From Flavobacteriaceae bacterium GF1 (GTDB lineage: Bacteria; Bacteroidota; Bacteroidia; Flavobacteriales; Flavobacteriaceae), in NCBI GenBank assembly GCA_009797885.1, contig WNKP01000010.1, positions 1 to 64,000 of the forward strand: 64,000 bases of DNA, written 5' to 3'. This document shows positions 3,438 to 60,295 of the stretch, one piece after another. How positions within the stretch are numbered: the first letter of the stretch is position 1; each line of letters starts with the position of its first letter. The translations under genes and the position numbers were made by a program. The notes under the pieces are model-generated. The model saw only the letters and a list, made by a program, of their open reading frames with translations. It had not been told where the DNA came from and made no database searches.

Positions 3438-3782
3438 TTAGTACTCCCGGATACCGTTTGCAGGCACATCATGAATATCCCCAAAAGTTTTCATCAGGTA
3501 AGGAGAATGGACTTCGTTACGTTCCAGCATGACCCAGGCCGGATTGATGCCTTTGGTCTCATACAGGAAATTTAGCAGGTGGCACAACTTGGTTGATGTG
3601 ATACTGTTTCGGCTCTCCAGTCTTACTATCGTGTTTGCGGTAAATTTCCCCTCTGCGTCCAAAAGCTGCTTGCGGTTTAAATACCTATTGACGATTTCAA
3701 CAAATTCATCCTGGGTCTTGCAATACACTTCAGTCCGCAATCGTCTGACCCTTAGACCTATTTTTTTGAATCGTTCTCTCAT
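3438..3782 (-). CDS. Small XRE-type helix-turn-helix regulator, paralogue A
   Basis: This is a 114-residue protein from ATG 3782. An upstream in-frame start at 3830 exists, but it lies inside the P3 hairpin, and the alignment with the two paralogues (6684-7088 and 42191-42595) begins at this Met (MRERFKKIGLRVRRLRTEV). The pattern IG.RVRRLRTE, KTQ.EFVE, GKFT.NT..RLE, then KL.HLLNFLY and GINPAWV resembles the INPNWL-type XRE regulators common in Bacteroidota. A DNA-binding role is inferred; the target is unknown. It is shorter at the C-terminus than the other two, which carry an extra ~20 residues (EYQRRIDE...). A structured leader and a dual-box promoter lie upstream (3959-4026). Confidence 0.72.
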   Translation of the reverse strand: MRERFKKIGLRVRRLRTEVYCKTQDEFVEIVNRYLNRKQLLDAEGKFTANTIVRLESRNSITSTKLCHLLNFLYETKGINPAWVMLERNEVHSPYLMKTFGDIHDVPANGIREY

Positions 3783-3821: not shown

Positions 3822-3958
3822 AGTGCTCACAGAAGGAAATTGTGCCCATCAAAAGAACACATGAGCCCTTCACGGCTAAGGGGTCCCAGTTTGTAAGGAC
3901 AGCATCTTTCTTTGGTAAAAAACGCTTTACGTTATCGTTTTCCCGGAACCGGATAATT
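3822..3958 (-). ncRNA. Structured leader RNA of XRE paralogue A
   Basis: Read on the minus strand from the promoter at 3959-4026. A long-range stem pairs CGGTTCCGGG with CCCCTTAGCCG (two mismatches). A small hairpin TGT-CCTT-ACA sits just before the 3' arm. A final hairpin pairs AGGGCTCA (3869-3862) with TGAGCACT (3829-3822), 7 of 8 positions. The ordering matches the other members of the family in this window. No strong T-run follows the last hairpin, so read-through into the XRE gene is expected. All pairings were read by eye. Confidence 0.5.
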
Positions 3959-4026
3959 TCAATCTACATAGGAGCGGGAATAAGAGCAAAGATCATTGCA
4001 TAAGTGGTTTATTGAAAAAATAAGTG
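3959..4026 (-). promoter_or_regulatory. Dual CACTTAT-box promoter of XRE paralogue A
   Basis: On the minus strand, CACTTAT at 4026-4020 and CACTTAT at 4006-4000 are separated by 13 bases. Nine bases later comes TTTG (3990-3987), then 20 bases, then TAGATTGA (3966-3959), a match to the Bacteroidota -7 element TAnnTTTG. The spacing is identical in the other strong copies. Confidence 0.7.
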
Positions 4027-4124
4027 GGCAGGCTAGGCTTAGGTAGCTTTTTTGGGTGCCCAATTACATTAAACCCACAAAACAGTAGGTATTTAAGACG
4101 CGGTCAGCGATTACCTTTTAACCG

Positions 4125-6683: not shown

Positions 6684-7088
6684 CTATAATCCAAGGCCGT
6701 AAAAATGCATGATGGTCTCCAGACGCTCGTCTATCCGGCGCTGATACTCCCGGATATCTTTTTTCAAAGCAAATAGGTCAATATTGCCGGGAACCTTTCT
6801 GAGATATGGTGCATGGGACAGATTCCGCTCCAATATGACCCAGGCGGGATTTATACACTTGGTGTCGTACAAAAAGTTGAGCAAGTGGTACAGTCGTGTC
6901 GACGTGATGTCATCCTTTGTCTCCAGCCTTGCCATTGTGTTTTGGGTAAACTTCCCCTCGTCATCCAAAAGCTGTTTTCGGTTTAAGTATCCATTGACCA
7001 TCTCAACAAACTCCTCCTGGGTTTTGAGGTAAACCTTGGTCCTTAGTTGTCTGATCCTTTTGCCCATGATTTTTGAGCATCCTTTCAT
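6684..7088 (-). CDS. Small XRE-type helix-turn-helix regulator, paralogue B
   Basis: This is a 134-residue protein from ATG 7088. A longer frame opens with TTG at 7172, but that start lies inside the terminator-like hairpin 7129-7197, and the paralogue alignment begins here (MKGCSKIMGKRIRQLRTKV). Shared features are IGKRIRQLRTK, KTQEEFVEM, GKFTQNTMARLET, LYHLLNFLYDTK, INPAWVILERN and a C-terminal helix with EYQRRIDERLETIMHF. Paralogues are at 3438 and 42191. The XRE/INPxW pattern supports DNA binding; targets are unknown. A strong intrinsic-terminator-like hairpin ends only 40 bases before the start, so expression may depend on read-through of an attenuator. Confidence 0.75.
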   Translation of the reverse strand: MKGCSKIMGKRIRQLRTKVYLKTQEEFVEMVNGYLNRKQLLDDEGKFTQNTMARLETKDDITSTRLYHLLNFLYDTKCINPAWVILERNLSHAPYLRKVPGNIDLFALKKDIREYQRRIDERLETIMHFYGLGL

Positions 7089-7298: not shown

Positions 7299-7305
7299 AA
7301 CGACC

Positions 7306-7373
7306 CGAAACTAGCTAAGGCCGGTAAGAGGAGCAAAGAACATTGCATAAGTGGTTCATGGAAAAAATAAGTG
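7306..7373 (-). promoter_or_regulatory. Dual CACTTAT-box promoter of XRE paralogue B
   Basis: On the minus strand, CACTTAT at 7373-7367 and 7353-7347, N13 between them. Then N9, TTTG at 7337-7334, N20 and TAGTTTCG at 7313-7306. All spacings equal those of the copies near 4.0, 39-42 and 60 kb. Confidence 0.75.
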
Positions 7374-7669
7374 TACAATAACATCCTATTTGCACAAAAT
7401 CTTTGGGAGCAATGGCCATCAAGCATGGGAATGCGACCCTTTGAAGCGTCAAGTGTCTTGCTTTTCAATACACCCGATGCAATGGGACCTCATGTTCTTC
7501 CCATCCATAAAAATCCAATTGCGCTAGTAGGATTTATGGTGGCCTCAATTGGATGCCTCCATCGCAATTGGGTTTGAGTAAAAACAAATTAGGATAGGGC
7601 GCCAATGCTTCGGAGATGCTATACGCATAATCAACAAAAATACCTTTTGTCGCAGGCCTCTACAGCGCC

Positions 7670-16546: not shown

Positions 16547-18127
16547 ATGGAATTTAATGGCGATTTTAATTTTACCAAAATTCGAACTTCATGGACAAAA
16601 TATGACATCGTCCGGGTACTTGAGGTTGTCCACAGTCCTGAAATCCTAAGGAAATATGTAAATCGGGAAGCCAAAATGGATGGGCGCATACTTCGTTCAT
16701 TTCTTGGAATGAAATCCCTTGACCATCCCATTCCCGGGTACTGGATCGATATCCAAAAATATCCACAAGAGAAAAAACTCTTCGCTTTGTTTTCTGTAAT
16801 CTTCACACATGGGGACATCGTAAAAAAATTTGCCGAAGAGTACACCTGTGGCAATATGAAGGGACTGTTTATCTACACATCCGGTAAGGAATATACCAAT
16901 ATCAGAAGTGCGCTTGTGGAGTCGGGGGCTGCCAAACCCTATCTCAGAAAAGCAAAAGAAGTTCCTTTTGATTTTTCCCCAATTTTTCAAAATTTCGAGG
17001 TTGGCAAACTCTTCAAAAGGGTGCTTAAAGAACGGATTGCGAGGCTGACCAAAGTAACTCCCAATGATACCGATTTTTACAAGATATGTCTTGGCAACAA
17101 CTTCCATAAGGCCATGGGTATTTCAAGCCATAAATTTTGGACATGGTTGGAAGGAACTAAAATGATCGAAAGCGAGAACAATTATATCAATACCGTCAAA
17201 ATAGCCAATTTTCACGCTATCCATCAGGCACGTATCGACAATCTCTCCAATACCAAGGAAATCTATTTTGTAGGAGAAAATGGAGATGGAAAATCCCTTG
17301 TTTTAATGGCCATTTATCTCACATTCAATCGATTTTTCGTTTTGGAACATACGAATGGGGAAAGAGGTGGTAAAACAAAACATATTTTAAATGGCAATTC
17401 TTCCATGGAGCTTCTTGGGATCGACAGCAGCGGTAAAAAATATGGTCAAAAAAGTGATGGTTATTTAAGGGATCTATATGCATATGGCCCCCATCGGGGA
17501 AGGTATCGGTCATCCAATTCCGAATCGTATGGATTTATGTCCCTTTTCGATAATGACCAAACACTTATGGACCCTATTTCCTGGCTTACGAATCAAAAAC
17601 GGGCTGAACTACAAAAGCCTGGAAATACCGCTCTGGATTCCAAAGATAATGGGAGTGCCGTAGCACTATTTTCCACACCGTTTTTGGAACATATGTTCTA
17701 TGAACTATCCGATAAAAATGTTCAAATACGAATAGGGTACAATACCGTCACTTTTATTGAAAAAGGAACCCCGCTCCATTTCAACCAATTATCGGAGGGA
17801 TACCGAAGTATGGTAATTTTTGTTTCGGATTTGCTCTGCAGGCTAAGTAGCAGTCAACCTGAGGTGAAGAAAGTTAAAAACCTCTATGGAGTTGTACTGG
17901 TAGATGAAATTGACCTACATCTTCATCCAAAATGGCAAAGGGTTTTGGTCAAAAAATTGAGGGTATTGCTACCGAGGGTACAATTCTTTTTCACCACCCA
18001 TAGTCCAATCATTATTGAAAGTGCTTCAAATGATGCTGTTATTTATAGGGTGTATCGAAATTCCGGGACCGGGGAAACGAAAATATCTTCTCCATACCTT
18101 AAAAAGTCCCAATTATTTAGCGTTTAA
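16547..18127 (+). CDS. AAA/ABC-like ATPase with a unique N-terminal domain
   Basis: This is a 526-residue protein. Residues 1-235 match nothing I recognise. Walker A is GENGDGKS (243-250), followed by a degenerate ABC-type signature LSEGYRSM (about 416-423). Walker B is VVLVDEIDLHLHP (Asp453, Glu454), and a switch His485 lies in FFTTHSP. This is the AAA_21/OLD-like layout of many anti-phage ATPases (Septu PtuA, retron and Gabija-type partners), which usually have Walker A near the N-terminus; here it is about 240 residues in, so the N-terminal domain is an addition. Position after a DNA methylase suggests defence, but no nuclease domain is visible. Function is not assigned. Confidence 0.75.
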   Translation: MEFNGDFNFTKIRTSWTKYDIVRVLEVVHSPEILRKYVNREAKMDGRILRSFLGMKSLDHPIPGYWIDIQKYPQEKKLFALFSVIFTHGDIVKKFAEEYTCGNMKGLFIYTSGKEYTNIRSALVESGAAKPYLRKAKEVPFDFSPIFQNFEVGKLFKRVLKERIARLTKVTPNDTDFYKICLGNNFHKAMGISSHKFWTWLEGTKMIESENNYINTVKIANFHAIHQARIDNLSNTKEIYFVGENGDGKSLVLMAIYLTFNRFFVLEHTNGERGGKTKHILNGNSSMELLGIDSSGKKYGQKSDGYLRDLYAYGPHRGRYRSSNSESYGFMSLFDNDQTLMDPISWLTNQKRAELQKPGNTALDSKDNGSAVALFSTPFLEHMFYELSDKNVQIRIGYNTVTFIEKGTPLHFNQLSEGYRSMVIFVSDLLCRLSSSQPEVKKVKNLYGVVLVDEIDLHLHPKWQRVLVKKLRVLLPRVQFFFTTHSPIIIESASNDAVIYRVYRNSGTGETKISSPYLKKSQLFSV

Positions 18128-30700: not shown

Positions 30701-33700
30701 CCGTCATTGCCCACGTCCACATCGTAGGTCCCAATGGCGGGAATGGTTATAGAGGTATCCGTGGACGAACCCGATTTGGTCGTGTCCCAGGTGGTCACGA
30801 ATACGTCTGTGGGGACCGTACTTGCCAATACGGTCACTGAGGCCGTACAGGTGTTCGTCAGGGTGTTGGCAGCGGTCACCGTAAGGGTGGCCGTTTCCGT
30901 GCCTGCGGTGGTGAAAGCGTTCGGTTGTATTGCCAGGGATATGTCGCCACAGCCATCGCTACCGTCGTCCACAAGGTCGGCCGTTAAGATGGCCGTACCG
31001 GTGGCGCCGTCCAGTTGGACCGTCACATCCTTGCACGAGGCCGTCGGCAGGTCCTGTGAAACGCCGTCGCCGGTAATGGCAAAGTTCATCGAGCCACGCT
31101 CGTTGAAGGCCTCACAGTACACCAGGCCAGAGGCTCCCACGGTAAGGCCGTTAGAGCCCTGTCCGTGCCAACCCACCAGCGTCGCGTCCCAGTTCGCAAC
31201 CGAGAGCCCTGTCCCGTTGAGCATGGAGGTTGCCAGGGTCAACAGCCCAAGGTCCCATCCCCCCAGGTCCTGGTCAAAGGTGCTTGCCCCATTGAGCATG
31301 GAGGTCATATCGGTCGCGCTGCCCGTGTCCCAACTGCCGATCTCCCCGTTGAAGGACACTGCCCCGGAGAACATTCCGGACATATTGGACACCCCGGCCG
31401 TGTTCCAGATTGCAAAGCCTGTGCCCCCCTCAAGGGACGTACAGCCCTTGAACATATCGGCCATGGTCGCCACACTCCCCAGGTTGGGCGCGTCATCCGT
31501 ATCCACCTTCAGGTTCGTACAGCCCTCAAAGGCACCTTCCATCGTGCTCCAGGCCACATTGGTGCTCCATTGGTCCACCGAGAGCAGCTTCTCCCTGTCG
31601 CCGCCGTCCGTGCCCCCAAAGTGTATCCGGGTCAGGGTCCCCGCCCCTGTCGCCGCACTGCTGAGGGCCACCTGTATCTCCCCGGCGGTATAGTTGCCAT
31701 TGGTTGCAGGGTCCGTGTAATTGGTCACGATCACCGTTGTGGTCCCGGTCTGGTCGAACAGGTCGTAGGTGCCGTCATTGCCCACGTCCACATCATAGGT
31801 GCCCGTGGCAGGGATGGTGATGGAGTTGTCGGCAGAGGCGCCGGACTCGGTCGTGTCCCAGGTGGTGACGAAGGCGCTTGTGGGATAGGCCACAATGGTG
31901 ACCTTGGCCGCACAGCTACTTTCATTCCCATTGGGGTCGGTGACCGTTAGGGTAACCGTCTCTTCACCAATATCAGAGGTCACGAAGCTGACCTTGGATA
32001 AGCTTAGGGAGACCTCCCCACAAGCATCGCTGGAGCCATTGTCCACGAAAGCGGTATCCAGGGTGGCCGTACCGTCCGCGGCCAATTGGAGTATGGTCGG
32101 TTGACAAACGGCCGTTGGTGGGGTGGTTTCCTTACTGTCATTGATGATGTTCAGGGTCAGCGCGGCACGCTCAGTGCCGGCCGTACAGTATTCCAGGCCA
32201 TTGGCCCAGATGGTCACGGTGTTGGTAAGTCCCTGTCCGTGCCAACCGATGATCGTGGCGTCCCAGCTCGCAGGGGAGAGCCCAGCCAAATAGAGCATCT
32301 CCCTACCTGCAGTCACATTGCTCATGTCCCAGGCCCCCAGGCTCCGGTCAAAGGCTTCCGCAAACTGGAACAGATAGCCCATATTGGTTACACTGCTGGT
32401 GTTCCAGCCACTGATGTCCCCATTAAAGGATTTCGCGGCGGCAAACATGCTGCTCATGGTGGTCACGCTGCTGGTATTCCACATACCGATCTCCCCGTTA
32501 AAACCGCTTGAGCTGAACATCCCTCTCATATCAAGTACGCCGCTGGTGTCCCAGGAATTGAGATCCTGATTAAAGACATTCGTAAGGGCAAACATGTTGG
32601 ACATATCGGTCACGTTGCCGGTATTCCAGCCATTGAGGTCCCCGTTAAAAACAGATGCGCTCATAAACATTTCCGCCATATCGGTGACATTACCCGTGTC
32701 CCAATGGGAGAAACCTTTCGCTCCCGTAAGGGAGATGCACCCCCTAAACATGCTACTCATATTGGTCACATTGCCCAGGTTCGGAGCATCCGTGGCATTG
32801 ATCTGCAAATTGCTACAGCCCCAAAATGCACTTTCCATTGTACTCCAGGCGATGCTGCTCCCCCAATTATCTACCGAAAGTAGCTTTCGCTTGTCGCCCC
32901 TATTATTGAAGTTTATCCGGGTCAGTCCCCCGGTCCCGGAGGCATTGCGAAGGGCCACTTGTATCTCCCCGGACGTATAGCCATAGGCTGTTACATCTAT
33001 GGTAATGGACCCGCTTTGGTCCGTAAGGTCATAGTCACCATCATTGCCCAGATCCACATCGTAGGTCCCCGTGGCGGGGATGGTAATGGAGTTCGAATCA
33101 GATGGACCAGTTCTGGAGGTGCTCCAGGTGGTCACAAACGTTTCAGGATTCACAACCGTAACGGTGGCCTGGCAGGTGCTCGTAGTGCTGCCGTTGGTCA
33201 CCGTAAGGGTCACCGTGTTCGCACCCAGATCTGCTGTCGTAAAGCTGCTCTTCGATAAACTTAGTGAAACCCCACAGCCATCGCTACCATTGTCCACAAG
33301 GGAGACCTCCAAAGTGGTGTCCGTGCTACCGGTGTCCAATTGTAGGATTGCCTCCCGACACTCGGCCTTCGGAGGGGTAGTTCCCAGATTGTCACCGGTA
33401 AAGCTGAAGTTCGTCATTGCGGCACGCTCGGCAAAGGCCTTACAATAGACCAATCCCGAAGCGCCGATGGTGGCCGTATTGGTCAAACCCTGTCCGTGCC
33501 AACCGATCAGCGTGGCATCCCAGTTGTCCTCGGAGAGCCCACTGCCATTGAGCATCCCGGTGCCATTGGTCAACTGCCCAAGATCCCAGGCCCCCAGGTT
33601 CCCATCAAAGGCGCTTGCACTGTTAAACATATTGGACATATCGGTCACATTACTCAGGTCGGGAACATCACTAGCTTTAGCTTCCAGGTTGGAACAGCCA

Positions 33701-38728: not shown

Positions 38729-39068
38729 GGGAATCTTGGGCCTTTCATCCCCATTGGCCTGGCTATTTGAATTCTTTTTGCCCGATGTATCACGTTAATG
38801 ACCCACGCGTAAATGGTTATCCCCTGGGAACTTGGTGGGAAGTCCAATACCAAAGATTGATCGGCATTGGAAAGGTTTGGTAGGTGCTTGCAAGATATGA
38901 ACCGCTTCAAGGACGTCCCAAACGCAGTTGAGGTGGGACAATCAAGGCCCTTACTTTTGATTTTATCGCGTTTGATTTTGGTAGATTGTGTATTGTATTC
39001 TTTTCATAGTTCCGGTCTGGTAACGTTCTTTTCCCCAAAGGGATTTTCACCGATTGGCGACAACCCCA

Positions 39069-39136
39069 CACTTATCTTTTCAATGCAACACTTATGCATC
39101 CCTTTTTGCTCCCTTTCCAACCGTTAATTAGTTTCA
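39069..39136 (+). promoter_or_regulatory. Dual CACTTAT-box promoter of stand-alone RNA 1
   Basis: CACTTAT (39069-39075), N13, CACTTAT (39089-39095), N9, TTTG (39105-39108), N20, TAGTTTCA (39129-39136). Confidence 0.72.
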
Positions 39137-39142
39137 CGTTTT

Positions 39143-39282
39143 CAAATTCTTCGGACTGCCTGTCCAATTCAAGTTCATCGTACCAAGGCAATCTGAGGTT
39201 CCTTTTATTAAGGATTTGAATTAGGTGTTTACGGGGGAGGATTCATTTTTTTTACAGGAATGGTTAGAATCCTCCCCATTTT
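39143..39282 (+). ncRNA. Candidate stand-alone structured small RNA 1
   Basis: No reading frame of note. P1 pairs TTCAAATTCTT with AAGGATTTGAA (11 pairs, one G-T). P2 is CCTT-ttatt-AAGG just before the 3' arm of P1. P3 pairs GGGGAGGATTC (39234-39244) with GAATCCTCCCC (39267-39277), followed by ATTTT. Order and geometry match the other family members while the P1 sequence differs. The nearby 38729-39068 stretch shows no gene. Confidence 0.55.
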
Positions 39283-39314
39283 AAAGGACTTTCCAAGAAT
39301 ATAAAATTACCACA

Positions 39315-39382
39315 CACTTATTGCCCAGAAAACACACTTGTGCATTGCTTTTTGTTACCCTTCTGGCCTTTGCATAATTTTC
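39315..39382 (+). promoter_or_regulatory. Dual CACTTAT-box promoter of stand-alone RNA 2
   Basis: CACTTAT (39315-39321), N13, CACTTGT (39335-39341), N9, TTTG (39351-39354), N20, TAATTTTC (39375-39382). Confidence 0.72.
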
Positions 39383-39387
39383 GGATT

Positions 39388-39516
39388 ATTCAGGCCAAGG
39401 GCACCTATTTAATTTAAAATTACAAGTAACAAGGGCTGTTGGGTCCCTTGGCTGAATTAAGGTTATAATTTGGTTGGGAGGATTCTCTTTTAGCGATTAC
39501 TGGAATCCTCCTTTTT
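39388..39516 (+). ncRNA. Candidate stand-alone structured small RNA 2
   Basis: P1 pairs CAG-CCAAGGG (39391-39401) with CCCTTGG-CTG (39445-39454), one bulge. P2 is AACA-agggc-TGTT. P3 pairs GGAGGATTC (39477-39485) with GAATCCTCC (39503-39511) and is followed by five T, a standard intrinsic terminator. About 130 nt from predicted start to terminator. No gene was seen in 39517-39833. Confidence 0.6.
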
Positions 39517-39833
39517 CCAACGTTTTCTGTCCCGAACTACTTTACACTTATATGCTCAACGGCCCATTTGTTCTTTTCAATGGTCCATTTATGAAGCAGT
39601 CTTTGTAGCTCTTCCGACCCTGATGTATTTTTAGGCTGTCCCGTTTCTGGGTTAGTACATCTTTAACATAGCGCATGATTTTGTATCACAGATTGGGATT
39701 ACTTGGTTTGACCGGTTTTTCGTTTAGGGGGAATCGCATGATATCGTTCTGCCATTGTCCCTGATTGTGCTTTTTAAAGGATTGACCATCAGTACTGGTT
39801 TTTAGTTAAACGTAGTTTGTTCTTAACATTTTA

Positions 39834-40178
39834 ATGCTTATGAAATACCCTTTTTTAATTATCATATTATTTTTTTCCTTGGCATGTTATTCGCAACAAT
39901 GGCCTTTTGGACAGGAAATCAATGCAGAATATTCTTATGGTGTTCCGGATGGACAAGAGTTTGCCGAACAATACGGGACGTATGGGGTACCACAGGTACA
40001 ACTGAATTGTACAGATAGTATCCCTTTTGCCATTAACGCTTGTGGATTGCAGGGAAAGTGGAACAAACCTGCAAAGGCAGCACCGCTGTGTACCACATTC
40101 TATAGGAAACATTTTTTAGGATTATATGCATATGTAGGCTGTAAAGCCATGGACAAAAAGAAGAATTCAGTCAACTGA
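39834..40178 (+). CDS. Small secreted protein of unknown function
   Basis: This is a 114-residue protein (or 112 from the ATG at 39840) with a hydrophobic signal sequence KYPFLIIILFFSLACYSQ. Either Ser-Gln is a signal-peptidase site or the Cys of SLAC is a lipoprotein site. The mature part has three further cysteines, but no family is recognised. Coding status rests on the credible export signal and a position between RNA cassettes on the same strand; the basic tail KKKNSVN is ordinary. Confidence 0.5.
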   Translation: MLMKYPFLIIILFFSLACYSQQWPFGQEINAEYSYGVPDGQEFAEQYGTYGVPQVQLNCTDSIPFAINACGLQGKWNKPAKAAPLCTTFYRKHFLGLYAYVGCKAMDKKKNSVN

Positions 40179-40300
40179 TCCGCTGCTTGTACCATTGCAA
40201 TGACATTTAATGAAACCCTCCCAAAATGACGTATAAAATCAAGGTTGGACGGAATGGATTTGCAAACGATAGCCCAGGATTTAATCAACAACAGTGAACA

Positions 40301-40510
40301 ATGTTAAATAAAGATTTCTGTTCGGACGGCTACTCCAGCATTCTCGAAAATTTGAGGGACAATGAATACTTGATCCAAGAAGATGTTGACGTGCTCATCA
40401 AAGACGCTTTCGAGAAAAAAACAATTGTTTTGACAAATATTAGTGAGGAAAAAGCCGAAATAGTTCGAAGGGCCCTTTTAGAAAACAGTAAACGAAGAAA
40501 GTTCGAATAA
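40301..40510 (+). CDS. Small acidic/helical protein of unknown function
   Basis: This is a 69-residue frame from ATG 40301. The sequence is strongly helix-forming (ILENLRDNEYLIQEDVDVLIKDAF, EEKAEIVRRALLENSKRRKFE) with amphipathic spacing and a basic end, which suggests a real small protein rather than chance. No family recognised. It lies between the secreted protein at 39834 and the queE-like gene at 40735. Confidence 0.45.
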   Translation: MLNKDFCSDGYSSILENLRDNEYLIQEDVDVLIKDAFEKKTIVLTNISEEKAEIVRRALLENSKRRKFE

Positions 40511-40734
40511 CGAACTACCGTTTTGAAGAAAACTGCAGTAAACAGTGACACCAATATGATGGCCACGTTCTTGCTTACCCCAAATAGGGTTGACGAGGGG
40601 AGCAAAAAGCGGGGACCAGTGGACCGTGCTTTCCCAATAAACAGATTTTTAACCCTGCGGTTTGGGACCGTTTTCGTCTTGCAAAACAAAGTGACGCTAC
40701 CGAGGAAAGGTTTCCCATACCAAAGCCCTTATAA

Positions 40735-41487
40735 GTGAAGATTTCCAACAACAATGGCGTACCGGAAATATTCCATTCCCTGCAGGGAGAGGGAAAATCG
40801 ATCGGTAGGCCCTCCATATTCATTAGAACCAGTTTGTGTAATCTTCATTGTATTTGGTGTGATACCGATTACACCTGGAATTGGAAAAGCACCGATTTCA
40901 AACATAAAAATGACCGCAAGGAGGGATATTCAAAGTTCAGCAAAGAAGATCAAATTATAGAATTGGATACTTCGGAAATTGTTTCCATTGTTCTAGGGTT
41001 CGACTGCAGCAGCATTGTCCTGACCGGTGGAGAACCTTTGATCCAGCAATTTGGACTCGTAAAAGTGATGAAGGTGTTGAGGGAGAAGCCAATGGATTAT
41101 CATTTTGAAGTGGAAACAAACGGGACAATCATGCCCACTAGGGAAGTTGACGCATTGATCGATCAATACAACGTTTCCCCAAAACTTAAAAACTCGGGTA
41201 TCCCGGAATCCCTAAGAATTAAACCGGAGCCACTGGGTTTTTTTAGTAAAAGCCATAAGGCAAACTTTAAGTTTGTGGTCTCCGACAAGGGCGATATTGA
41301 AGAAATCCTAACACTCATGGCCATCTATGGAATCGATCCGAATCGCATCTATTTGATGTCCGAAGGAACATCCATGGATGAACTGTCAGAAAAAAACAAT
41401 TGGCTTGTGGACATATGTAAAAAGTACAATTTTCATTTTACCCATAGGCTCCATATTTTTATTTGGGGGTCAAAAAGGGGAATATGA
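40735..41487 (+). CDS. queE: 7-carboxy-7-deazaguanine synthase (QueE), radical SAM
   Basis: This is a 250-residue protein from a GTG start. The N-terminus EIFHSLQGEGKSIGRPSIFIRT is the QueE hallmark. The iron-sulfur motif CNLHCIWC (Cys35, Cys39, Cys42; CX3CX2C) is followed by DTDYTW. VLTGGEPL (about 101-108) binds SAM, and FEVETNG and NVSPKLKNSG are typical of the family. QueE forms the 7-deazaguanine core from 6-carboxytetrahydropterin on the way to preQ0 and queuosine, or to 7-deazaguanine-modified DNA. No queC, queD, queF or folE is in the window, so it stands alone here among RNA cassettes. The full partner set must be elsewhere, or the enzyme serves another pathway. Confidence 0.88.
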   Translation: MKISNNNGVPEIFHSLQGEGKSIGRPSIFIRTSLCNLHCIWCDTDYTWNWKSTDFKHKNDRKEGYSKFSKEDQIIELDTSEIVSIVLGFDCSSIVLTGGEPLIQQFGLVKVMKVLREKPMDYHFEVETNGTIMPTREVDALIDQYNVSPKLKNSGIPESLRIKPEPLGFFSKSHKANFKFVVSDKGDIEEILTLMAIYGIDPNRIYLMSEGTSMDELSEKNNWLVDICKKYNFHFTHRLHIFIWGSKRGI

Positions 41488-41685
41488 AGTCATGGAGGTA
41501 CTTATGGGATTATCACTTCATATTTGGACCTATTGAACCAAGTTCCTTAAAGCCGCTTTCCAATCTATTGACTTAGTACCGTTTTTGGAAGTTCTACCTA
41601 TGTTACTTTTTCTAAAGTAATGGCCGCGATTTCATTTTATAGTAGCACATCCTTCTAATGACTTTTTCTATACATAATTATGCTA

Positions 41686-41753
41686 CACTTATTTTTTCTA
41701 TAAACCACTTATGCATTCGTTTTTGCCCATCCTTTAATTCCCATTTAGTTTTG
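41686..41753 (+). promoter_or_regulatory. Dual CACTTAT-box promoter of stand-alone RNA 3
   Basis: CACTTAT (41686-41692), N13, CACTTAT (41706-41712), N9, TTTG (41722-41725), N20, TAGTTTTG (41746-41753). This is the best consensus match in the window. Confidence 0.78.
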
Positions 41754-41758
41754 GGCCA

Positions 41759-41925
41759 TACAGCTTAGGGAATACCATATTCTATTTAAGTTTAGTGTTT
41801 CATATTAGTTTAAGATGGTTCTACAATCTCAGATTGAAATCCCTAAGCTGGTGCTATGGTTGGTTTTAGGTTAGAGGAGGGTCCATGCACTATGGAAAGA
41901 CCAATGGTGCATGGACCCTCCTCTT
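41759..41925 (+). ncRNA. Candidate stand-alone structured small RNA 3
   Basis: P1 is a perfect 11-bp stem, CAGCTTAGGGA (41761-41771) with TCCCTAAGCTG (41840-41850). P2 is CAATC-tca-GATTG (41824-41836), three bases before the 3' arm. P3 is a perfect 17-bp stem, 41874-41890 (starts GAGGAGGGTCC) with 41907-41923. Only TTCCT follows, so termination by a T-run is not clear. No reading frame of note. Confidence 0.65.
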
Positions 41926-41957
41926 CCTAAGATCTGCTTTCCATAGGAAATTACTCA

Positions 41958-42025
41958 CACTTATCTTTTTAACAAACCGCTTATGCATCGGCCTTTGCCT
42001 CTCTCCTTACCCTTGTATAGTTTCG
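41958..42025 (+). promoter_or_regulatory. Dual CACTTAT-box promoter of XRE paralogue C
   Basis: CACTTAT (41958-41964), N13, CGCTTAT (41978-41984), N9, TTTG (41994-41997), N20, TAGTTTCG (42018-42025). Confidence 0.74.
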
Positions 42026-42030
42026 GGTTA

Positions 42031-42161
42031 TTGGTTTAGGGTCAGTATTTCTTAGCTTAGAATGATTCTGTTCCCACTTAGTGGGTTCCCTAAGCCGGTA
42101 TGATTTTGACATATGGGAGAATCCCGGTATCACGGAATATTCCAGTATGCCGGATTCTTCC
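42031..42161 (+). ncRNA. Structured leader RNA of XRE paralogue C
   Basis: P1 pairs GGTTTAGGG (42033-42041) with CCCTAAGCC (42088-42096), one wobble. P2 is CCCAC-tta-GTGGG (42073-42085), in the same place as P2 of RNA 3 but with every pair changed, a compensatory difference. P3 pairs 42115-42127 (GGGAGAATCC..) with 42150-42161 (..GGATTCTTCC), without a T-run, 29 bases before the XRE start. Confidence 0.6.
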
Positions 42162-42190
42162 TGCCAAAATCCAAACTATTGATCTCTGAT

Positions 42191-42595
42191 ATGAAAGAAT
42201 GCCCAAATATTATAGGCCAACGGGTCAGGCGACTACGTACCGAGGTATACATCAAAACCCAGGAAGAGTTTGTCGAAATGATCAATGGATATCTAAGCGG
42301 TAAGCAGCTCTTGGAGGATGTAGGGAAATTCACCCAAAACACAATGGCCAGGCTGGAGACACTGGATGGCATCACTTCAAAAAAACTGTACCACTTTTTA
42401 AACTTTTTGTACGATACCAAACGGATCAATCCAGCCTGGGTCATACTAGAGCACAACGAGTCCCTCACACCATATCTGAAGCCCCCTTTGGGGAATATCA
42501 ATCCTTTTGACCTGCAAGCGGATATCAAGGAGTACCAGCGTCAAATAGACGAGTGCGTAGAGACTTTTATGCACTTTATGGGACTTAAGCTATAG
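42191..42595 (+). CDS. Small XRE-type helix-turn-helix regulator, paralogue C
   Basis: This is a 134-residue protein from ATG 42191. An in-frame ATG at 42113 lies at the edge of the P3 hairpin of the leader, and the family alignment begins at MKECPNIIGQRVRRLRTEV. It contains KTQEEFVEMINGYL, GKFTQNTMARLETLDGITSKKLYHFLNFLYDTKRINPAWVILE and the C-terminal helix EYQRQIDECVETFMHFMG. It is clearly paralogous to 6684-7088 (closest) and 3438-3782. A DNA-binding role is inferred from the XRE/INPxW pattern. It sits between RNA cassettes 3 and 4 on the same strand. It may control the cassettes or be controlled by the dual-box factor. Confidence 0.75.
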   Translation: MKECPNIIGQRVRRLRTEVYIKTQEEFVEMINGYLSGKQLLEDVGKFTQNTMARLETLDGITSKKLYHFLNFLYDTKRINPAWVILEHNESLTPYLKPPLGNINPFDLQADIKEYQRQIDECVETFMHFMGLKL

Positions 42596-42657
42596 CGGGT
42601 CACACCCCTCTTGTGTAATGATTGGTACACGGCCGTCCCTTTTTACTAATTATTTCC

Positions 42658-42725
42658 CACTTATCTTTTCACCGACCCGCCTATGCAACTGCCCTTGTCC
42701 CTCTTACCATCCTGGTGTAATTTTG
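42658..42725 (+). promoter_or_regulatory. Dual CACTTAT-box promoter of stand-alone RNA 4
   Basis: CACTTAT (42658-42664), N13, CGCCTAT (42678-42684), N9, CTTG (42694-42697), N20, TAATTTTG (42718-42725). Confidence 0.72.
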
Positions 42726-42730
42726 GGTTG

Positions 42731-42869
42731 TCCAGTAAGGGCTATCATGCTTTCAGCGTTTACTATGACTCTGTTGTCAAAGATTGGGGTTTCCTGGCTG
42801 GGCAGATTTTTCCATTTAGGGGAGGATTACGGTTTCGTTCTGCATTCGTACCGGATTCTCCCCTTTTTT
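42731..42869 (+). ncRNA. Candidate stand-alone structured small RNA 4
   Basis: Close in sequence to the leader of XRE paralogue B: both have CTGTT.., AGATTGGG.TTTC.TGGCTGG and a GGGGAGGA hairpin. P1 pairs CCAGT.AGGG with TTTCCTGGCTGG (one mismatch). P3 pairs 42819-42833 (GGGGAGGATTACGGT) with 42850-42863 (ACCGGATTCTCCCC) and is followed by six T. It ends about 120 bp before the convergent cyclase gene. Confidence 0.62.
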
Positions 42870-42987
42870 AAGGATTCCCCAGCAAAAAATCAACTTGTCC
42901 ACGCTTTTCTTCACGGAAAACCCAAAAACCACGGCACAAATGGGGAGGGCAGTTTAAAACAGCTGTACGTCTTTATCAGGAAATGCG

Positions 42988-43809
42988 TTATTTGACCAAC
43001 GCCACTATCCTTAAGGGTGCCCCTGTCCCCCCTTTAATTTTCATGGGAAGTGCTATTATTTCAAATCCCCGACTTGGCAACTTATCGAGATTTGTTAAAT
43101 TCTCGAAGGCTGGAATGTTTTGGGAAAGTAAAGTAACATGACTTTCAAAAAACTCGGACTGACCGTAGTCTATGCTTGGTGTATCAATTCCAATCGCATG
43201 TATGTTTCGTTGTTCAACGATCCATTTGGCCGCCTCTGGTGAAAGCCCTGGAAAATGCAGTTCTTTAATTGCCAATATTCCGCGTGCCGCAGTTCCCATA
43301 TACCTGATTCTATCTGGGTAATATCGAGCAAAGCCTGTTTGCAATAAAACAATGCTGCCTTCTGGAATCTTAGTTTTTTCCCTTGCTTCCCATTCCATTA
43401 AATCGTTTATACTTATTAAATAATCAGGATTGTCCAGTGCTTTTGACGAAATATCGATTTTTATTGCTGGCCCAACCAACTTAGTGAGCGGTATTTCATC
43501 AACTGTTTGACCTTTTTCCGCAAAATGAATGGGCGCATCAATATGTGTCCCCCCATGTTCGGCAGTACTAAAATTATTGGCGGAATAATAATACCCTTTG
43601 TCCGTGAACCCACTAAAAACGGTATCCAATTGAAACAATCTTGCCGTAACCCAATACACCGTCTCATGGGAATAGGTGTGGGATAAATCAACTAATTTGC
43701 CCCCTAATACATTTTCATTTGAAGAACCATTGATTTCCTTTGAAGGATTTTGTTCTCCAATGCATGAAAAAAATAACAATAGTAGAATGGAAAGTAGTGG
43801 TTTGTTCAT
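42988..43809 (-). CDS. Cyclase-family lipoprotein (kynurenine-formamidase-like metal hydrolase)
   Basis: This is a 273-residue protein with an N-terminal hydrophobic stretch ending FFSC (Cys16), a likely lipoprotein site. The PF04199 (cyclase) fold shows LVDLSHTYSHETVYW near residue 38, the metal-binding HGGTHIDAPIHF (about 84-95; H-G-G-T-H-x-D), GSIVLLQTGFARYY, and IDTPSIDYGQSEFFESH (about 197-213, second metal/catalytic His region). FEIIALPMKIKGGTGAPLRIVAL closes the fold. Family members hydrolyse amides such as N-formylkynurenine, or cyclise polyketides; the substrate here is unknown. Export as a lipoprotein suggests periplasmic action. It is probably a single-gene unit. Confidence 0.85.
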   Translation of the reverse strand: MNKPLLSILLLLFFSCIGEQNPSKEINGSSNENVLGGKLVDLSHTYSHETVYWVTARLFQLDTVFSGFTDKGYYYSANNFSTAEHGGTHIDAPIHFAEKGQTVDEIPLTKLVGPAIKIDISSKALDNPDYLISINDLMEWEAREKTKIPEGSIVLLQTGFARYYPDRIRYMGTAARGILAIKELHFPGLSPEAAKWIVEQRNIHAIGIDTPSIDYGQSEFFESHVTLLSQNIPAFENLTNLDKLPSRGFEIIALPMKIKGGTGAPLRIVALVK

Positions 43810-45343: not shown

Positions 45344-47719
45344 TCATGTGAGTGCCCCCACACTTTTTAAAATGCGTCTATACCAGCTTTTTGTAGTGTT
45401 CCCGGAATTATATCCGTATCCGTAATTATTATATCGATATGATTTATTTCCTACAACATCATTTATAAGATAGGTCATGTTGGGTAGTTTTTGGGTCCGA
45501 CTCAAATCTTTTGAGAATCCCAACAAGCGTTTATCAGTAAATCCCAGTCGTGTCAGGTATATTGTCACATCTGCGTATTTAGAGATCAAGAATGTATCGG
45601 TCACCAAAATAGTTGGCGCTGTGTCCACAATAATGTATTCAAATTCGCTTTTTACAGTGGCAATAAATCTTGCGAAAGCACCTCTGGACAACACTTCGGG
45701 AGCATTTGGCAGTATGATCCCTCCAAAGCAAACCTTATGGTCCTTATTTTCATCGTACATTTCATGAACGCACTCCTGCCAATCCATTTCTGGATTATGC
45801 AAATAATCGGCAAGTCCAGTAATGCTCTTATCCACGTTAAAGTACGTATGAAGTTGTGGGTTTCTTAAATCAGATCCTACAAGGAGTACTTTCTTTTTCA
45901 TCCTGGCATAAGCCAAGGAAAGGTTTAAAGCCGTAGTGGTTTTCCCCTCTCCTTGAATAGCGGAAGTGACATAGATGATCTGTCCTTCAGAGTTATCCTT
46001 TTCAGGCAGCAAATAGTTGATATTGACCGCCAAAATCATAAAAGACTCCGCTAACACGGAACCATCATTGAATTCCCCAAACTTCTTTTTCCCTTCAATA
46101 TATGGGACCTCTCCCAGAATCGGTATCTCAGGGGCAATCTTCTCCAAATCCAATCTATCATTTATTTTGGTATTCAAAAACGTTCGTAGGAACACCATTG
46201 CCAATGGGATTATGGCCCCACAAAAAGCTGAAATTGCCATTACAATTCTTTTGTCCGGCGAAACGGGCTCCATGCTGGTCAAACCATAGTCCACTATTTT
46301 AATGGAGGGCTCGGTTATGGCAAGATTGATTGCGGCCTCTTCACGCTTTTGCAAAAGCAGCAAAAACAGTTTTTCCTTTAAATCCTGGCGCCGTTCTATG
46401 GCCCGTAACACCTTTTCCTTTTCTGGAATCTGCGAGAACATCAAATTGGAATGGTCCCTTTCTTGATTCAGTTTTGTTAGCGACACCTCCAATTGTCCTT
46501 GGTATGTATTTAGGGTCGTCACTATATTTAACTTTACCTTTCCCAACTGTTCAGATAGCATGGCAAGCAATGGATTATTGTCCCCGGCACTTGCCATAAG
46601 TTCCTCTCGTTTTAGCACCAATTGATTGTATTCCGAAATAAGGGTATTAATGGAACTATCCCCTAAACCAAGATTGACGGGCAATAAATTGTAAACATCC
46701 TTATCGCTGATGGTTTCTTTTAGGAGCCCGCAAAGCGAAATTTGGGTCTGGGTACGAAAAACTTCATTGTCCGCGGCACTCATTTTTTGTAGTATCAATT
46801 CTGCGTCCGCCGTAATATGGGAGAGGTCATTGGATTGCTTGAAGTCCTTTTTTTGAATTTCAATGGAGTCCAATTCCCTGGACAGGTAAAAAAGTCTTTC
46901 GTCCATAAAATCCAAGGTACGCTTTGAGACCAATTGTCTGTCCAAAACACCATCTTGATTGAACTTCTCGATTATAGTGTTTAAAATGGCCTCATTTAGG
47001 CGTATACTTTCCCCTTCCAGGACCAAATACAGGATTTCACTGTTCATATCGGTGGTCCTCACTTCCAATTCTTTGGAAAGCTCTATTACAGCTTCCTTAA
47101 CAGGTTTTAGAACCACATAAAATTCCATATCCCGATATTTCTGGGCCGTTTCTTTTTCCAACAACTTAATCCCAAAAGGAAGACCTTGTACGGATTTCGT
47201 GGAATTATGGCCATCAATGGTGAATACATCACCTTTTTCATCAATTACAGTGAATCCAAAAGGCGTTACTCGTATCCTGTATTGATTCTCCCTTTCCTCA
47301 AGAAATCCCAAAATGGAATCGGTTACAGTAAACGGTGGGGGCCAAATCTCAGAGGTCCTTAGATTGGTCTTTGTATAATACCTAACCTCCAAGTCCAACT
47401 CTTTTACCACTTGGGACAACAATCTGTATGATTTAAGAATTTCCATTTCATTGCCCAAACTGATTTTGGGATTGTTCCCCAAAAGGGACAGTGCGTCCAC
47501 GGACAGACCCAGTTCTTTGGAGTCATCCATAATTTTGATCTTTGCAATCGACCTATGGGTAATAGGAACAATACTCAGGTATAAAAAACCAATACATAAG
47601 CAGAGAACTACACTGGTCAAAAACCAGGGCCAATGGCTCTTGCACTGGAAAAAGACATCTTTAAGGTCAATAAAATCCCCATCATTATCGTAGTATATTA
47701 TATCTGGATTTTTCTCCAT
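45344..47719 (-). CDS. Polysaccharide co-polymerase / tyrosine autokinase (Wzc type)
   Basis: This 791-residue protein has an N-terminal Wzz-type domain with a first membrane helix (about 33-54), a long periplasmic coiled-coil part (about 60-480), and a second helix (about 490-512). The cytoplasmic BY-kinase domain has Walker A SAIQGEGKTTTALN, Walker A' VLLVGSDLRNPQ and Walker B EYIIVDTAP. It ends in a tyrosine-rich tail (SYRYNNYGYGYNSG) for autophosphorylation. Family role: control of chain length and export of capsule or exopolysaccharide together with a Wza-type channel, not seen here. A terminator follows. The Asp usual at the start of Walker A' is replaced by Gly (VGSD), while the second Asp is kept. 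Confidence 0.93.
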   Translation of the reverse strand: MEKNPDIIYYDNDGDFIDLKDVFFQCKSHWPWFLTSVVLCLCIGFLYLSIVPITHRSIAKIKIMDDSKELGLSVDALSLLGNNPKISLGNEMEILKSYRLLSQVVKELDLEVRYYTKTNLRTSEIWPPPFTVTDSILGFLEERENQYRIRVTPFGFTVIDEKGDVFTIDGHNSTKSVQGLPFGIKLLEKETAQKYRDMEFYVVLKPVKEAVIELSKELEVRTTDMNSEILYLVLEGESIRLNEAILNTIIEKFNQDGVLDRQLVSKRTLDFMDERLFYLSRELDSIEIQKKDFKQSNDLSHITADAELILQKMSAADNEVFRTQTQISLCGLLKETISDKDVYNLLPVNLGLGDSSINTLISEYNQLVLKREELMASAGDNNPLLAMLSEQLGKVKLNIVTTLNTYQGQLEVSLTKLNQERDHSNLMFSQIPEKEKVLRAIERRQDLKEKLFLLLLQKREEAAINLAITEPSIKIVDYGLTSMEPVSPDKRIVMAISAFCGAIIPLAMVFLRTFLNTKINDRLDLEKIAPEIPILGEVPYIEGKKKFGEFNDGSVLAESFMILAVNINYLLPEKDNSEGQIIYVTSAIQGEGKTTTALNLSLAYARMKKKVLLVGSDLRNPQLHTYFNVDKSITGLADYLHNPEMDWQECVHEMYDENKDHKVCFGGIILPNAPEVLSRGAFARFIATVKSEFEYIIVDTAPTILVTDTFLISKYADVTIYLTRLGFTDKRLLGFSKDLSRTQKLPNMTYLINDVVGNKSYRYNNYGYGYNSGNTTKSWYRRILKSVGALT

Positions 47720-49667: not shown

Positions 49668-50411
49668 CTACTTTATCTTTAGAAACCTATTAAGGGAGTT
49701 TAGCTTTCTTTTGGCTACAGGTATGGATTCGCCCACTTTTAATTCCAAATAATTTCCGCCTGCCTTGTTGATGTTTTGAACTTGCGTAAGGTTAACGATA
49801 TAAGAGTGGTGCGTCCTAAAAAATGTTTTGGGACACAGCAGTTTTTCAAATTCGCCCAAATTTCTACTTGCCAATTTGGTCAGTCCACAACTCAACAGAA
49901 ACCGGGTGTACCTCCCTTCTGCTTTTAAGTAGACAATATGCCTTTTTTCTATTAGCTCAATCTTATCCATGGAGGGTAAGGCCAATATGTTTATATCCTC
50001 TTCTTCATTTTCCCTATTGTTTTCCAAAAACTGCCTGTTCTGTGCAAGCCTCATTTTTTGTTTCGCTTTATTGACCGCCAACAGCAGATCTTCCAGTTTC
50101 AAAGGTTTCAACAAATAAGCAATGACATCATAGGATATTGCTTTCAATGCGTATTTGTCCACATTGGATGTTATTACAAAATTGGACTTTGTCCAAAGGC
50201 TTTCAATAATTTGGAAACCACACCCATCCTTTAATTCGATTTCCAGGAACACAATATCCGGTTTAAGGGTATGGATCGAATCCATGGCCTTCTCAATGTC
50301 TTCCGTAAATCCGAGTATGTTGATCTCAGGAAAGTATTTTTGAAGAACAAATGCCAATCCTCCATAAGAAACTTCATTTTCTACGATAAATGCCTTTAAT
50401 TCTTGTATCAT
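49668..50411 (-). CDS. LytTR-family response regulator with a substituted phospho-acceptor
   Basis: This is a 247-residue protein. The receiver domain (1-120) has the fold landmarks FIVENE, DIVFLEIEL and YLLKPLKLEDLL. The phospho-acceptor Asp is replaced by Glu57 (FLEIEL), and the acidic pocket reads Glu11-Asn12-Glu13 instead of two adjacent Asp. The LytTR DNA-binding domain follows (about 150-247: IVYLKAEGRYTRFLLSCG, FFRTHHSYIVNLTQVQNI, VGESIPVAKRKLNSLNRFL). A Glu in this place often mimics the phosphorylated state, so the protein may be constitutively active or controlled differently. No kinase adjoins it. It sits inside the exopolysaccharide cluster and may regulate it. LytTR domains bind paired direct repeats. 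Confidence 0.88.
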   Translation of the reverse strand: MIQELKAFIVENEVSYGGLAFVLQKYFPEINILGFTEDIEKAMDSIHTLKPDIVFLEIELKDGCGFQIIESLWTKSNFVITSNVDKYALKAISYDVIAYLLKPLKLEDLLLAVNKAKQKMRLAQNRQFLENNRENEEEDINILALPSMDKIELIEKRHIVYLKAEGRYTRFLLSCGLTKLASRNLGEFEKLLCPKTFFRTHHSYIVNLTQVQNINKAGGNYLELKVGESIPVAKRKLNSLNRFLKIK

Positions 50412-50785: not shown

Positions 50786-51301
50786 TTAAGACACCGCTTC
50801 CCTGATCCTAACGTTTATGGCATATCCCAAACTCGGTAAAAGTAACCGCATGCGTTTCTTGCCAATATGTTTAATGAACGCTTCCTGATTTTTAAAGACT
50901 CCATCGGAAATCGTTATCCTGTCCCCTGGAGACAAGTTTTCTACCTGCCATTGGTCAATTTCGTCGTTTTCATTCCATTTCCTTATGGCCCTGATTTCCG
51001 CATCACGCACCTCAGCTGGTTTTCCCAACCAAAAGAGATAATTTACGACACCGGGGACCGTAAACACCTGGTTGCGCTGTTGTGCTTTCAAATGGACAAA
51101 GACATAAGACTTGAACAAAGGGGTCGTTATCTTTTTTTTCCTATCGCTCCATTGACGTATTTCCTGCACAACCGGGCAATACACCTCTATGCCCATTTTT
51201 TTTAAAGCTTCCGCTACCCTTAGCTCTGATCGTGGTTTTGTATATATGACCAACCAGGGCATACCAGATTTTTTGTGTGTTATGTGATCAATTGGATCCA
51301 A
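50786..51301 (-). CDS. UpxY/NusG-like transcription antiterminator
   Basis: This is a 171-residue protein: an N-terminal NGN domain (WLVIYTKPRSELRVAEALKKMGIEVYCP..., LFKSYVFVHL, GVVNYLFWLGKPAEVRDAEI) and a C-terminal KOW-type segment (LSPGDRITISDGVFKNQEAFIKHIGKKRMRLLL). Size and pattern match the UpxY proteins that prevent premature termination of capsule and exopolysaccharide operons in Bacteroidota. Its usual target is the long leader of its own operon. Here the exopolysaccharide genes lie downstream on the same strand (49668-45344). The 50412-50785 gap after it has no gene. Confidence 0.88.
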   Translation of the reverse strand: MDPIDHITHKKSGMPWLVIYTKPRSELRVAEALKKMGIEVYCPVVQEIRQWSDRKKKITTPLFKSYVFVHLKAQQRNQVFTVPGVVNYLFWLGKPAEVRDAEIRAIRKWNENDEIDQWQVENLSPGDRITISDGVFKNQEAFIKHIGKKRMRLLLPSLGYAINVRIREAVS

Positions 51302-59891: not shown

Positions 59892-59999
59892 AGTTTAATT
59901 TGGTTTACTGATTTTACATCATTTAGCCCCATTTCAACACTGCATCTTAGACTAAGAAATGGTGGCTTGAACATTGGTTCCATAGTCTTTAGGTAATGT

Positions 60000-60067
60000 T
60001 AAAATTATACTGAGATACCCCCTGTTTGAAAAGCAAATGCATAAGTGTACCTATATTCGAATAAGTG
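60000..60067 (-). promoter_or_regulatory. Dual CACTTAT-box promoter of the small secreted protein gene
   Basis: On the minus strand: CACTTAT (60067-60061), N13, CACTTAT (60047-60041), N9, TTTC (60031-60028), N20, TAATTTTA (60007-60000). Spacing is identical to the strong copies. No P1/P2/P3 fold is evident in its short leader. Confidence 0.7.
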
Positions 60068-60295
60068 GATGCATAACTCCAAAGACAGCCTAAACGGTCC
60101 TAGTTTTTTTAACAGGACTTGAAAAAAGTCACTAAAAACATTGGTGATTACACAAGCAATCCCCGGTCCCAATTCCAAGGCCTTTTGGTTTTTACTTTCT
60201 CCCATAACAATACACCTGATTCAAATAGCCAAATGGACTGTTATTTATCTAGCGGAAGATTATCGTTAAGACAATACAGGATTACCGCAACGTGT

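What the first reader, a model, noticed from the sequence alone, without database searches (positions are those of the whole stretch)
41759..42161. Candidate new structured RNA family with compensatory base changes
After seven of the promoters the transcript folds alike: P1, a small P2 just before its 3' arm, then a GC-rich P3. P1 is CAGCTTAGGGA/TCCCTAAGCTG in one copy, CCAAGGG/CCCTTGG in another and TTCAAATTCTT/AAGGATTTGAA in a third. P2 is CAATC-GATTG, CCCAC-GTGGG, AACA-TGTT or CTGT-ACAG. Pairing is kept while sequence changes, the classic mark of selected RNA structure. I do not recognise it as a named family, although short Flavobacteria-specific RNA families exist in Rfam and could include it.
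Basis: partly seen in the sequence, partly recalled or inferred. Interest (0 to 1): 0.88.

Follow-up and report, generated by a model that had tools for sequence, protein, structure and literature searches.

The report
Multicopy structured RNA genes beside adhesins
A marine flavobacterium carries about nine diverged copies of a small RNA gene whose folded shape is kept while its letters change, apparently switched on from the same kind of control site as a giant surface adhesin; it matches no catalogued RNA family we could test, and what the RNA does is still unproven.

Summary
The window has eight copies (one degenerate), each directly after a shared 75-bp promoter block; a ninth lies elsewhere in the genome. 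P1 arms pair with their own copy better than with others (1 of 100,000 permutations as good); P3 likewise (0 of 100,000). In a hand-fitted alignment 15 of 20 pairs change on both sides (shuffles 7.4). RNAs are 90-99% identical to a sister species; longer flanking stretches mostly 77-88%. A model of the RNA alone recovers held-out copies B and E beside their promoters but misses others. No Rfam family reaches its cut-off. The upstream block (TACACTTAT-11 bp-ACCACTTAT, 9 bp before TTTG) resembles published LytTR direct repeats; a LytTR regulator lies in the window, and the block also precedes a 2457-aa T9SS-type adhesin. Eight of eight genes of a small orphan protein follow such an RNA. Distribution is narrow: three of 11 genus members and Poritiphilus flavus. 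Best reading: a new family of LytTR-activated paralogous small RNAs in a surface-adhesion regulon; expression, partner and targets are untested. Nearest known kind: FopS of Bacteroides.

The parts
41683..41755 (+). Copy A: LytTR-type direct repeat plus TTTG / TAnnTTTG promoter
   Evidence: R1 hit 61.7 bits
41756..41930 (+). Copy A RNA: P1 (CAGCTTAGGGA/TCCCTAAGCTG), P3 long hairpin
   Evidence: fold of 41756-41935 z -9.95; in the R2 seed
41955..42028 (+). Copy B promoter block
   Evidence: R1 hit 70.4 bits
42029..42161 (+). Copy B RNA, leads into the small orphan ORF
   Evidence: held-out R2 hit 42028-42160, E 0.015 in the window; fold of 42029-42165 z -4.42
42191..42595 (+). Small orphan protein (134 aa), HTH-like by eye only
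   Evidence: no Pfam or NCBIfam family
42655..42728 (+). Copy C promoter block
   Evidence: R1 hit 61.0 bits
42729..42863 (+). Copy C RNA, stand-alone, T6 after P3
   Evidence: R2 unfiltered 42728-42861, E 0.032 in a 4.1-kb region
39066..39139 (+). Copy D promoter block
   Evidence: R1 hit 60.2 bits
39140..39277 (+). Copy D RNA
   Evidence: P1 strongly diverged yet paired; 98.6% identical in G399; not distinguishable from noise with R2
39312..39385 (+). Copy E promoter block
   Evidence: R1 hit 54.5 bits
39386..39511 (+). Copy E RNA
   Evidence: held-out R2 hit, E 5.9e-4 in the window
39563..39635 (+). Copy F promoter block, degenerate
   Evidence: R1 hit 31.3 bits
39636..39775 (+). Copy F RNA, degenerate; P1 not supported; 3' end approximate
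   Evidence: 5 of 13 foreign arms pair as well
7303..7376 (-). Copy G promoter block
   Evidence: R1 hit 66.9 bits
7136..7302 (-). Copy G RNA, leads into the orphan ORF
   Evidence: G399 ortholog found by R2, E 0.0017; G itself E 0.11
6684..7088 (-). Small orphan protein, second copy
3958..4029 (-). Copy H promoter block
   Evidence: R1 hit 60.5 bits
3812..3957 (-). Copy H RNA, weak P1, leads into the orphan ORF
   Evidence: 8 of 13 foreign arms pair as well; not found by R2
3438..3782 (-). Small orphan protein, third copy, shorter
49668..50411 (-). LytTR response regulator, candidate activator (inferred)
   Evidence: Pfam LytTR E 2.2e-16 and Response_reg; orthologs
59998..60069 (-). Same promoter block in front of a small ORF with a signal-like start (by eye), no RNA seen
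   Evidence: R1 hit 42.4 bits

Best explanation
This is a lineage-specific family of paralogous structured RNA genes. Each copy starts right after a TTTG/TAnnTTTG promoter carrying a LytTR-type direct repeat, so a LytTR regulator (candidate: 49668-50411) probably activates all copies together with a giant T9SS-type adhesin and a few other genes. The transcript is about 130-180 nt: its 5' end is locked in stem P1, which closes a variable domain, and it ends near a strong hairpin P3 that is a plausible intrinsic terminator in about half the copies. Shown: the shared promoter block, kept pairing in P1 and P3, conservation between species, no Rfam match. Inferred: activation by LytTR, transcript ends, and the function, which I take to be trans-acting small-RNA control of surface or adhesion genes by pairing through the variable domain enclosed by P1. 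Where a copy precedes the small orphan ORF it may also serve as that gene's leader.
For: P1 and P3 permutation tests; covariation counts, 0 of 500 shuffles as high; 27 of 38 changed base pairs in nine G000-G399 ortholog pairs stay pairable (no null value was computed for this); RNA bodies 89.8-98.6% identical to G399 against mostly 77-88% in longer flanking stretches; the RNA-only model recovers held-out B and E at the promoter boundary, C weakly in a 4.1-kb unfiltered region, and in the own genome (150 of 1071 candidates scored) its five matches are all A, E, K or their antisense. The direct repeat resembles published LytTR repeats such as ACCACTTAT-12 bp-ACCGCTTAT (PMC6193735, passages; spacing here). 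LytTR protein in the window with close orthologs in G399 (98%) and P. flavus (72-81%), both of which have the promoters. Copies A, C, D, E, I, K and L stand alone or are followed at once by another promoter. No conserved small ORF: the internal ATG of B and H is lost in their G399 orthologs.
Against: No transcript data. P3 is followed by a run of 4 or more T in only 6 of 11 copies, and the terminator scan of 38900-43000 found none of the P3 hairpins and no more sites than shuffles give (its loop limit is 8). P1 of F, H, K, L and N is no better than 5-10 of 13 foreign arms. R2 does not find F or H, finds G only at E 0.11, and of seven held-out G399 copies finds only E9 and G9. G401 has the promoters and an RNA but no close LytTR ortholog. 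No target, chaperone or conserved unpaired seed was demonstrated. Alignment A5 was fitted by hand to the structure.
Confidence: 0.55

Rival explanations
1. Cis-acting leaders or attenuators: P3 is a regulated terminator in the 5' leader of the downstream gene, chiefly the orphan protein, and the stand-alone copies are relics of duplicated promoter-leader units.
For: 8 of 8 orphan-protein genes found (3 in G000, 3 in G399, 2 in P. flavus) follow a promoter block and RNA copy, by eye for H, J and M; adhesin leaders in G399 and G401 match R2 right after the promoter (25.1 and 21.7 bits), so the RNA can become an mRNA leader.
Against: No alternative pairing between P1 and P3 arms (z +0.93 to +1.93). 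At least seven copies are followed by another promoter or by no co-directional gene, yet A, C, D and E (92.9-98.6%) are as conserved as the leader copy B (92.5%). Copy J lacks P3.
Confidence: 0.25
2. The RNA binds and titrates or regulates the orphan HTH-like protein, an RNA-protein pair in which extra RNA copies are decoys.
For: Linkage of the protein to an RNA copy, 8 of 8; several extra RNA copies per genome.
Against: G401 keeps a copy K ortholog but no relative of the protein was found; the protein has no recognised domain and the structure model is of low confidence.
Confidence: 0.1
3. Only the promoter block is under selection; the RNA resemblance is duplication history plus ordinary terminators.
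For: The promoter block is the best conserved part among paralogs; terminator hairpins covary by nature; P1 is weak in several single copies.
Against: P1 is not a terminator and covaries over the set; RNA bodies are about as conserved as the promoters between species; R2 without the promoter finds held-out copies.
Confidence: 0.08

Closest known systems
FopS, family of paralogous sRNAs (Bacteroides thetaiotaomicron; PMC11697453, abstract and passages read)
   Same: Multicopy paralogous small RNAs in one Bacteroidota genome, many intergenic with their own phylum-type promoters.
   Different: FopS are about 65-70 nt with a conserved 5' seed and an RRM protein partner, 14 copies; these are 130-182 nt, strongly diverged in sequence with structure kept, under a LytTR-type site and linked to an adhesin and an orphan protein.
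LytTR regulons (PMC6193735, abstract and passages read)
   Same: 9-bp direct repeats with an ACCACTTAT-like core, 11-13 bp apart, a few bp upstream of the -35 element.
   Different: Here the site sits before repeated RNA genes besides proteins, with a Bacteroidota-type promoter.
Rfp18 and other structured sRNAs of Flavobacterium psychrophilum (PMC9723704, abstract and passages read)
   Same: Structured, independently transcribed sRNA of the family Flavobacteriaceae with predicted protease and adhesin mRNA targets.
   Different: I saw no paralogous array in the passages read; sequences were not compared.
6S-Flavo and Flavo-1 (Rfam RF01685, RF01705; named in PMC2864571, passages read)
   Same: Bacteroidetes noncoding RNA families.
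   Different: No match at gathering score in the window.

Membership tests
Any Rfam 15 family | Score at or above the family's gathering threshold | tested here: not met
   0 matches in the 64-kb window; permissive scans give only sub-threshold matches: 12 in 41600-42950, most of them the near-perfect hairpin of copy A to microRNA models, and one snoRNA match in 7 loci
FopS/GibS sRNAs | Length about 65-70 nt (FopS) | tested here: not met
   130-182 nt from promoter end to P3 end, 11 copies; transcript ends themselves not measured
FopS/GibS sRNAs | Shared R1 seed sequence | not tested
   The seed sequence was not compared
FopS/GibS sRNAs | Bound by RRM protein RbpB | not testable with these tools
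   Needs CLIP or EMSA
LytTR-regulated promoter | Two 9-bp direct repeats with 11-13 bp between, shortly upstream of the promoter | tested here: met
   12 of 13 pairs listed (spacings 19-23 tried) have 20 bp start to start, i.e. 11 bp between 9-mers; the 13th re-pairs a second box; published range
LytTR-regulated promoter | Bound and activated by a LytTR protein | not testable with these tools
   Candidate protein at 49668-50411; presence agrees with the promoters in G000, G399, G211 but not G401
XRE/HTH_3 regulators (orphan protein) | Match to an HTH profile | tested here: not met
   No HTH family in Pfam or NCBIfam; one weak PHROG regulator match, E 0.18; model pLDDT 43, all-helical
Structured RNA family | Covarying helices beyond chance | tested here: met
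   P1 and P3 over the set; P2 not met
Intrinsic terminator (P3) | GC-rich hairpin followed by a T run | tested here: inconclusive
   6 of 11 copies have 4 or more T in a row within 12 nt; none found by the scan

The most novel reading that the evidence does not exclude
A self-contained cassette, LytTR promoter - structured RNA - small orphan protein, in which the RNA and the protein are functional partners and the protein-less RNA copies are satellites that tune it, spread near adhesin genes in a few marine flavobacteria.
Probability: 0.15. Interest if true: 0.75.

Novelty: new variant of a known kind. Interest (0 to 1): 0.52.

Why it matters
In my judgement few small-RNA families of Flavobacteriaceae are characterised and few targets known. 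A multicopy RNA family with natural sequence diversity but a common architecture, tied by its promoter to a surface adhesin and present in a named isolate (Poritiphilus flavus R33), makes the question of how these bacteria use RNA to manage their surface directly testable.

Tried and rejected
P2 as a conserved helix: not supported. Attenuator pairing between P1 and P3 arms: none. Conserved small ORF starting at the internal ATG: rejected, the ATG is lost in the G399 orthologs of B and H. Mobile element on phages or plasmids: no match of 41683-42595 in either collection; no orphan-protein relative in viral contigs or genome contigs with the peptide patterns that those searches chose. Fold of the orphan protein: model too poor to search; no PDB sequence relative at E up to 1. 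MAFFT alignments A3 and A4 put some arms out of register and were not used for counting. Literature: no paper holding 'Poritiphilus flavus'; the listings were read only as listings, except the four papers cited. Target prediction was not attempted.

Rows dropped: the orthologs D9, E9, F9, G9 and K1, whose arm letters equal a listed row, were left out; P3 letters of F, J and N, and part of one P3 arm of M, were set to N; bulged letters were omitted and N put in for missing partners in C, E, F, G, H, I, K and L (and C9, H9, K9). One search, which checked the typed arms against the sequences, did not hold the sequence of L. One search used 12 copies (F and N left out); one search used 11 (F, J and N left out).

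Full report
What is there. The window comes from a 5.28-Mb flavobacterial genome of the genus that holds the MAG Croceivirga sp. PL25a_bin.19: G401's contig C37 has the length and the match coordinates of JANQKR010000013.1. Around 41759-42161 lie copies A and B of a repeated unit. Repeat and profile searches and a 75-nt sequence model of the upstream block, R1, find eight copies in the window: 39066, 39312, 39563 (degenerate), 41683, 41955 and 42655 on the plus strand, 7376 and 4029 on the minus strand. The own genome has 15 R1 hits below E 1e-4; by reading the downstream sequence I count ten with an RNA, including a clear ninth copy K at C10:27543 and a doubtful one (N) at C15:7256, and five without.

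Promoter. The block is TACACTTAT-11 bp-ACCACTTAT-9 bp-TTTG-about 20 bp-TAnnTTTG. The last two elements fit the Bacteroidota housekeeping promoter (recalled). The first two resemble published LytTR direct repeats, for example ACCACTTAT-12 bp-ACCGCTTAT of BrsR, with 11-13 bp between repeats, just upstream of the -35 element (PMC6193735, passages). A LytTR response regulator lies at 49668-50411. Close orthologs occur in G399 (98%) and three times in G211 (72-81%); the best match in each of the nine other genus members examined is 30-35%, including G401, which has the promoters: a mismatch. In G211 two of the three LytTR genes lie about 4 and 5 kb from a weak R1 hit (E about 2e-5). The same block without a clear RNA precedes a 2457-aa ORF with PKD and T9SS (CHU_C) domains on contig C59 and a small ORF at 59998.

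Structure. Without using an alignment, I asked whether the first 24 nt after the promoter pair better with the interior of their own copy than with that of other copies. Over 14 copies the summed energy was -257.1 against a permuted mean of -202.0; 1 of 100,000 permutations was as good, and 247 of 100,000 with the eight window copies alone. Control segments gave z -2.30 (promoter region), -0.16 and +0.97. Copy by copy the result is uneven: A, B, C, D, E, I, J and M are beaten or equalled by at most 1 of 13 foreign arms and G by 2, but F, H, K, L and N by 5, 8, 9, 5 and 10. P3: 0 of 100,000. On a hand-fitted alignment of arms (19 rows) 90.2% of 346 cells pair, 15 of 20 pairs have double changes (shuffles 7.4) and 40 cells carry them (shuffles 12.8), 0 of 500 shuffles as high; sliding the partners by 1-3 columns lowers every measure. 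Because the alignment was fitted to the structure, the permutation test is the stronger evidence. Between G000 and G399, nine ortholog pairs show 38 changed base pairs of the predicted folds, of which 27 stay pairable (one by a double change) and 11 break; the breaks lie in B, E, F and H, and I computed no null value. P2 is not supported.

Conservation and specificity. Against G399 the RNA bodies A-F are 89.8-98.6% identical and the promoter blocks 91.8-98.6%. Of the longer stretches taken as intergenic, five are 77.4-87.5% and one (40179-40500) is 93.8%; the short gaps between copies are 89.8-95.8%, and ORFs are 87.0-96.3%. A covariance model of RNA alone, R2, seeded with A, A9, K, K9, K1, I and L, finds in the window the held-out copies E (E 5.9e-4) and B (E 0.015) at their promoter boundary, besides A and an antisense match to the palindromic P3 of A. 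Unfiltered in a 4.1-kb region it adds C (E 0.032); part of D scores E 0.09, no better than an antisense match beside it. It misses F and H, and finds G at E 0.11 in a small search but its G399 ortholog at E 0.0017. Of seven held-out G399 copies it finds two, E9 and G9. In the own genome all five matches at E up to 10 are A, K, E or the antisense of A and K, with 150 of 1071 candidates scored; B is not listed there. In G399 and G401 the adhesin leader also matches right after its promoter (25.1 and 21.7 bits), the own genome's does not, so RNA and adhesin leaders probably share ancestry.

Linked protein. An orphan protein of about 134 aa follows a promoter block and RNA copy in 8 of 8 cases found: three in G000, three in G399, two in G211; for H, H9, J and M the RNA is recognised by eye, and J has no P3. 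It has no Pfam or NCBIfam family; a helix-turn-helix look is my reading only, and the structure model is poor. G401 has an RNA, and no relative of the protein was found in it.

Distribution. R1 at E 1e-4 or better: 3 of 11 genus genomes, with single weak hits in two more (E 0.017 and 0.043). Of 397 family genomes sampled, with stricter filters, two match at 1e-5: the own genome and G211. G211 is Poritiphilus flavus R33 by equal contig coordinates. An exact direct-repeat pattern found four stretches in genome contigs, in that species and in the Croceivirga MAG (the own genome may be left out there), and none in viral contigs. No match on phages or plasmids.

Interpretation. The RNAs measure 130-182 nt from promoter end to P3 end in 11 copies. 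Seven copies stand alone or are followed at once by another promoter, and no alternative P1-P3 pairing was seen, so I favour independent small RNAs in a LytTR surface regulon, with some copies doubling as leaders. Expression, partner and targets are untested. [quoted passage not shown] I file this as like FopS in kind, not as a member.

Noticed in passing
window 18742-35205 (-): One ORF of 5487 aa, giant adhesin-like (not scanned for domains); a similar protein start lies just downstream of RNA copy L and a second direct-repeat promoter in P. flavus (L079), while here only a single CACTTAT box was seen, about 450 bp upstream of the start.
   Followed up: partly
window 38728 (-) and 56363 (-): Further direct-repeat pairs (13 of 14 box letters each, 20-bp spacing) in front of other genes, possibly more regulon members.
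   Followed up: no
window 50786-51301 (-): NusG-like protein next to the LytTR regulator and near a Wzz/tyrosine-kinase polysaccharide gene (45344-47719), perhaps a specialised antiterminator.
   Followed up: no
window 8901-11030 and 12490-14670 (+): Two STT3/PglB-like oligosaccharyltransferases close together with glycosyltransferases.
   Followed up: no
window 14962-18127 (+): D12-class DNA adenine methyltransferase followed by an AAA ATPase with matches to AAA_15 and AAA_21 (AbiEii-like), possibly a defence pair.
   Followed up: no
L074 4435-7259: P. flavus keeps methyltransferase and sodium symporter genes with direct-repeat promoters at both places, but without the RNA-plus-orphan-protein units found there in the window (read by eye).
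   Followed up: partly
window 3438-3782 and L061 7131-7475: The orphan protein after copy H is shorter (114 aa) than its paralogs in both species.
   Followed up: no
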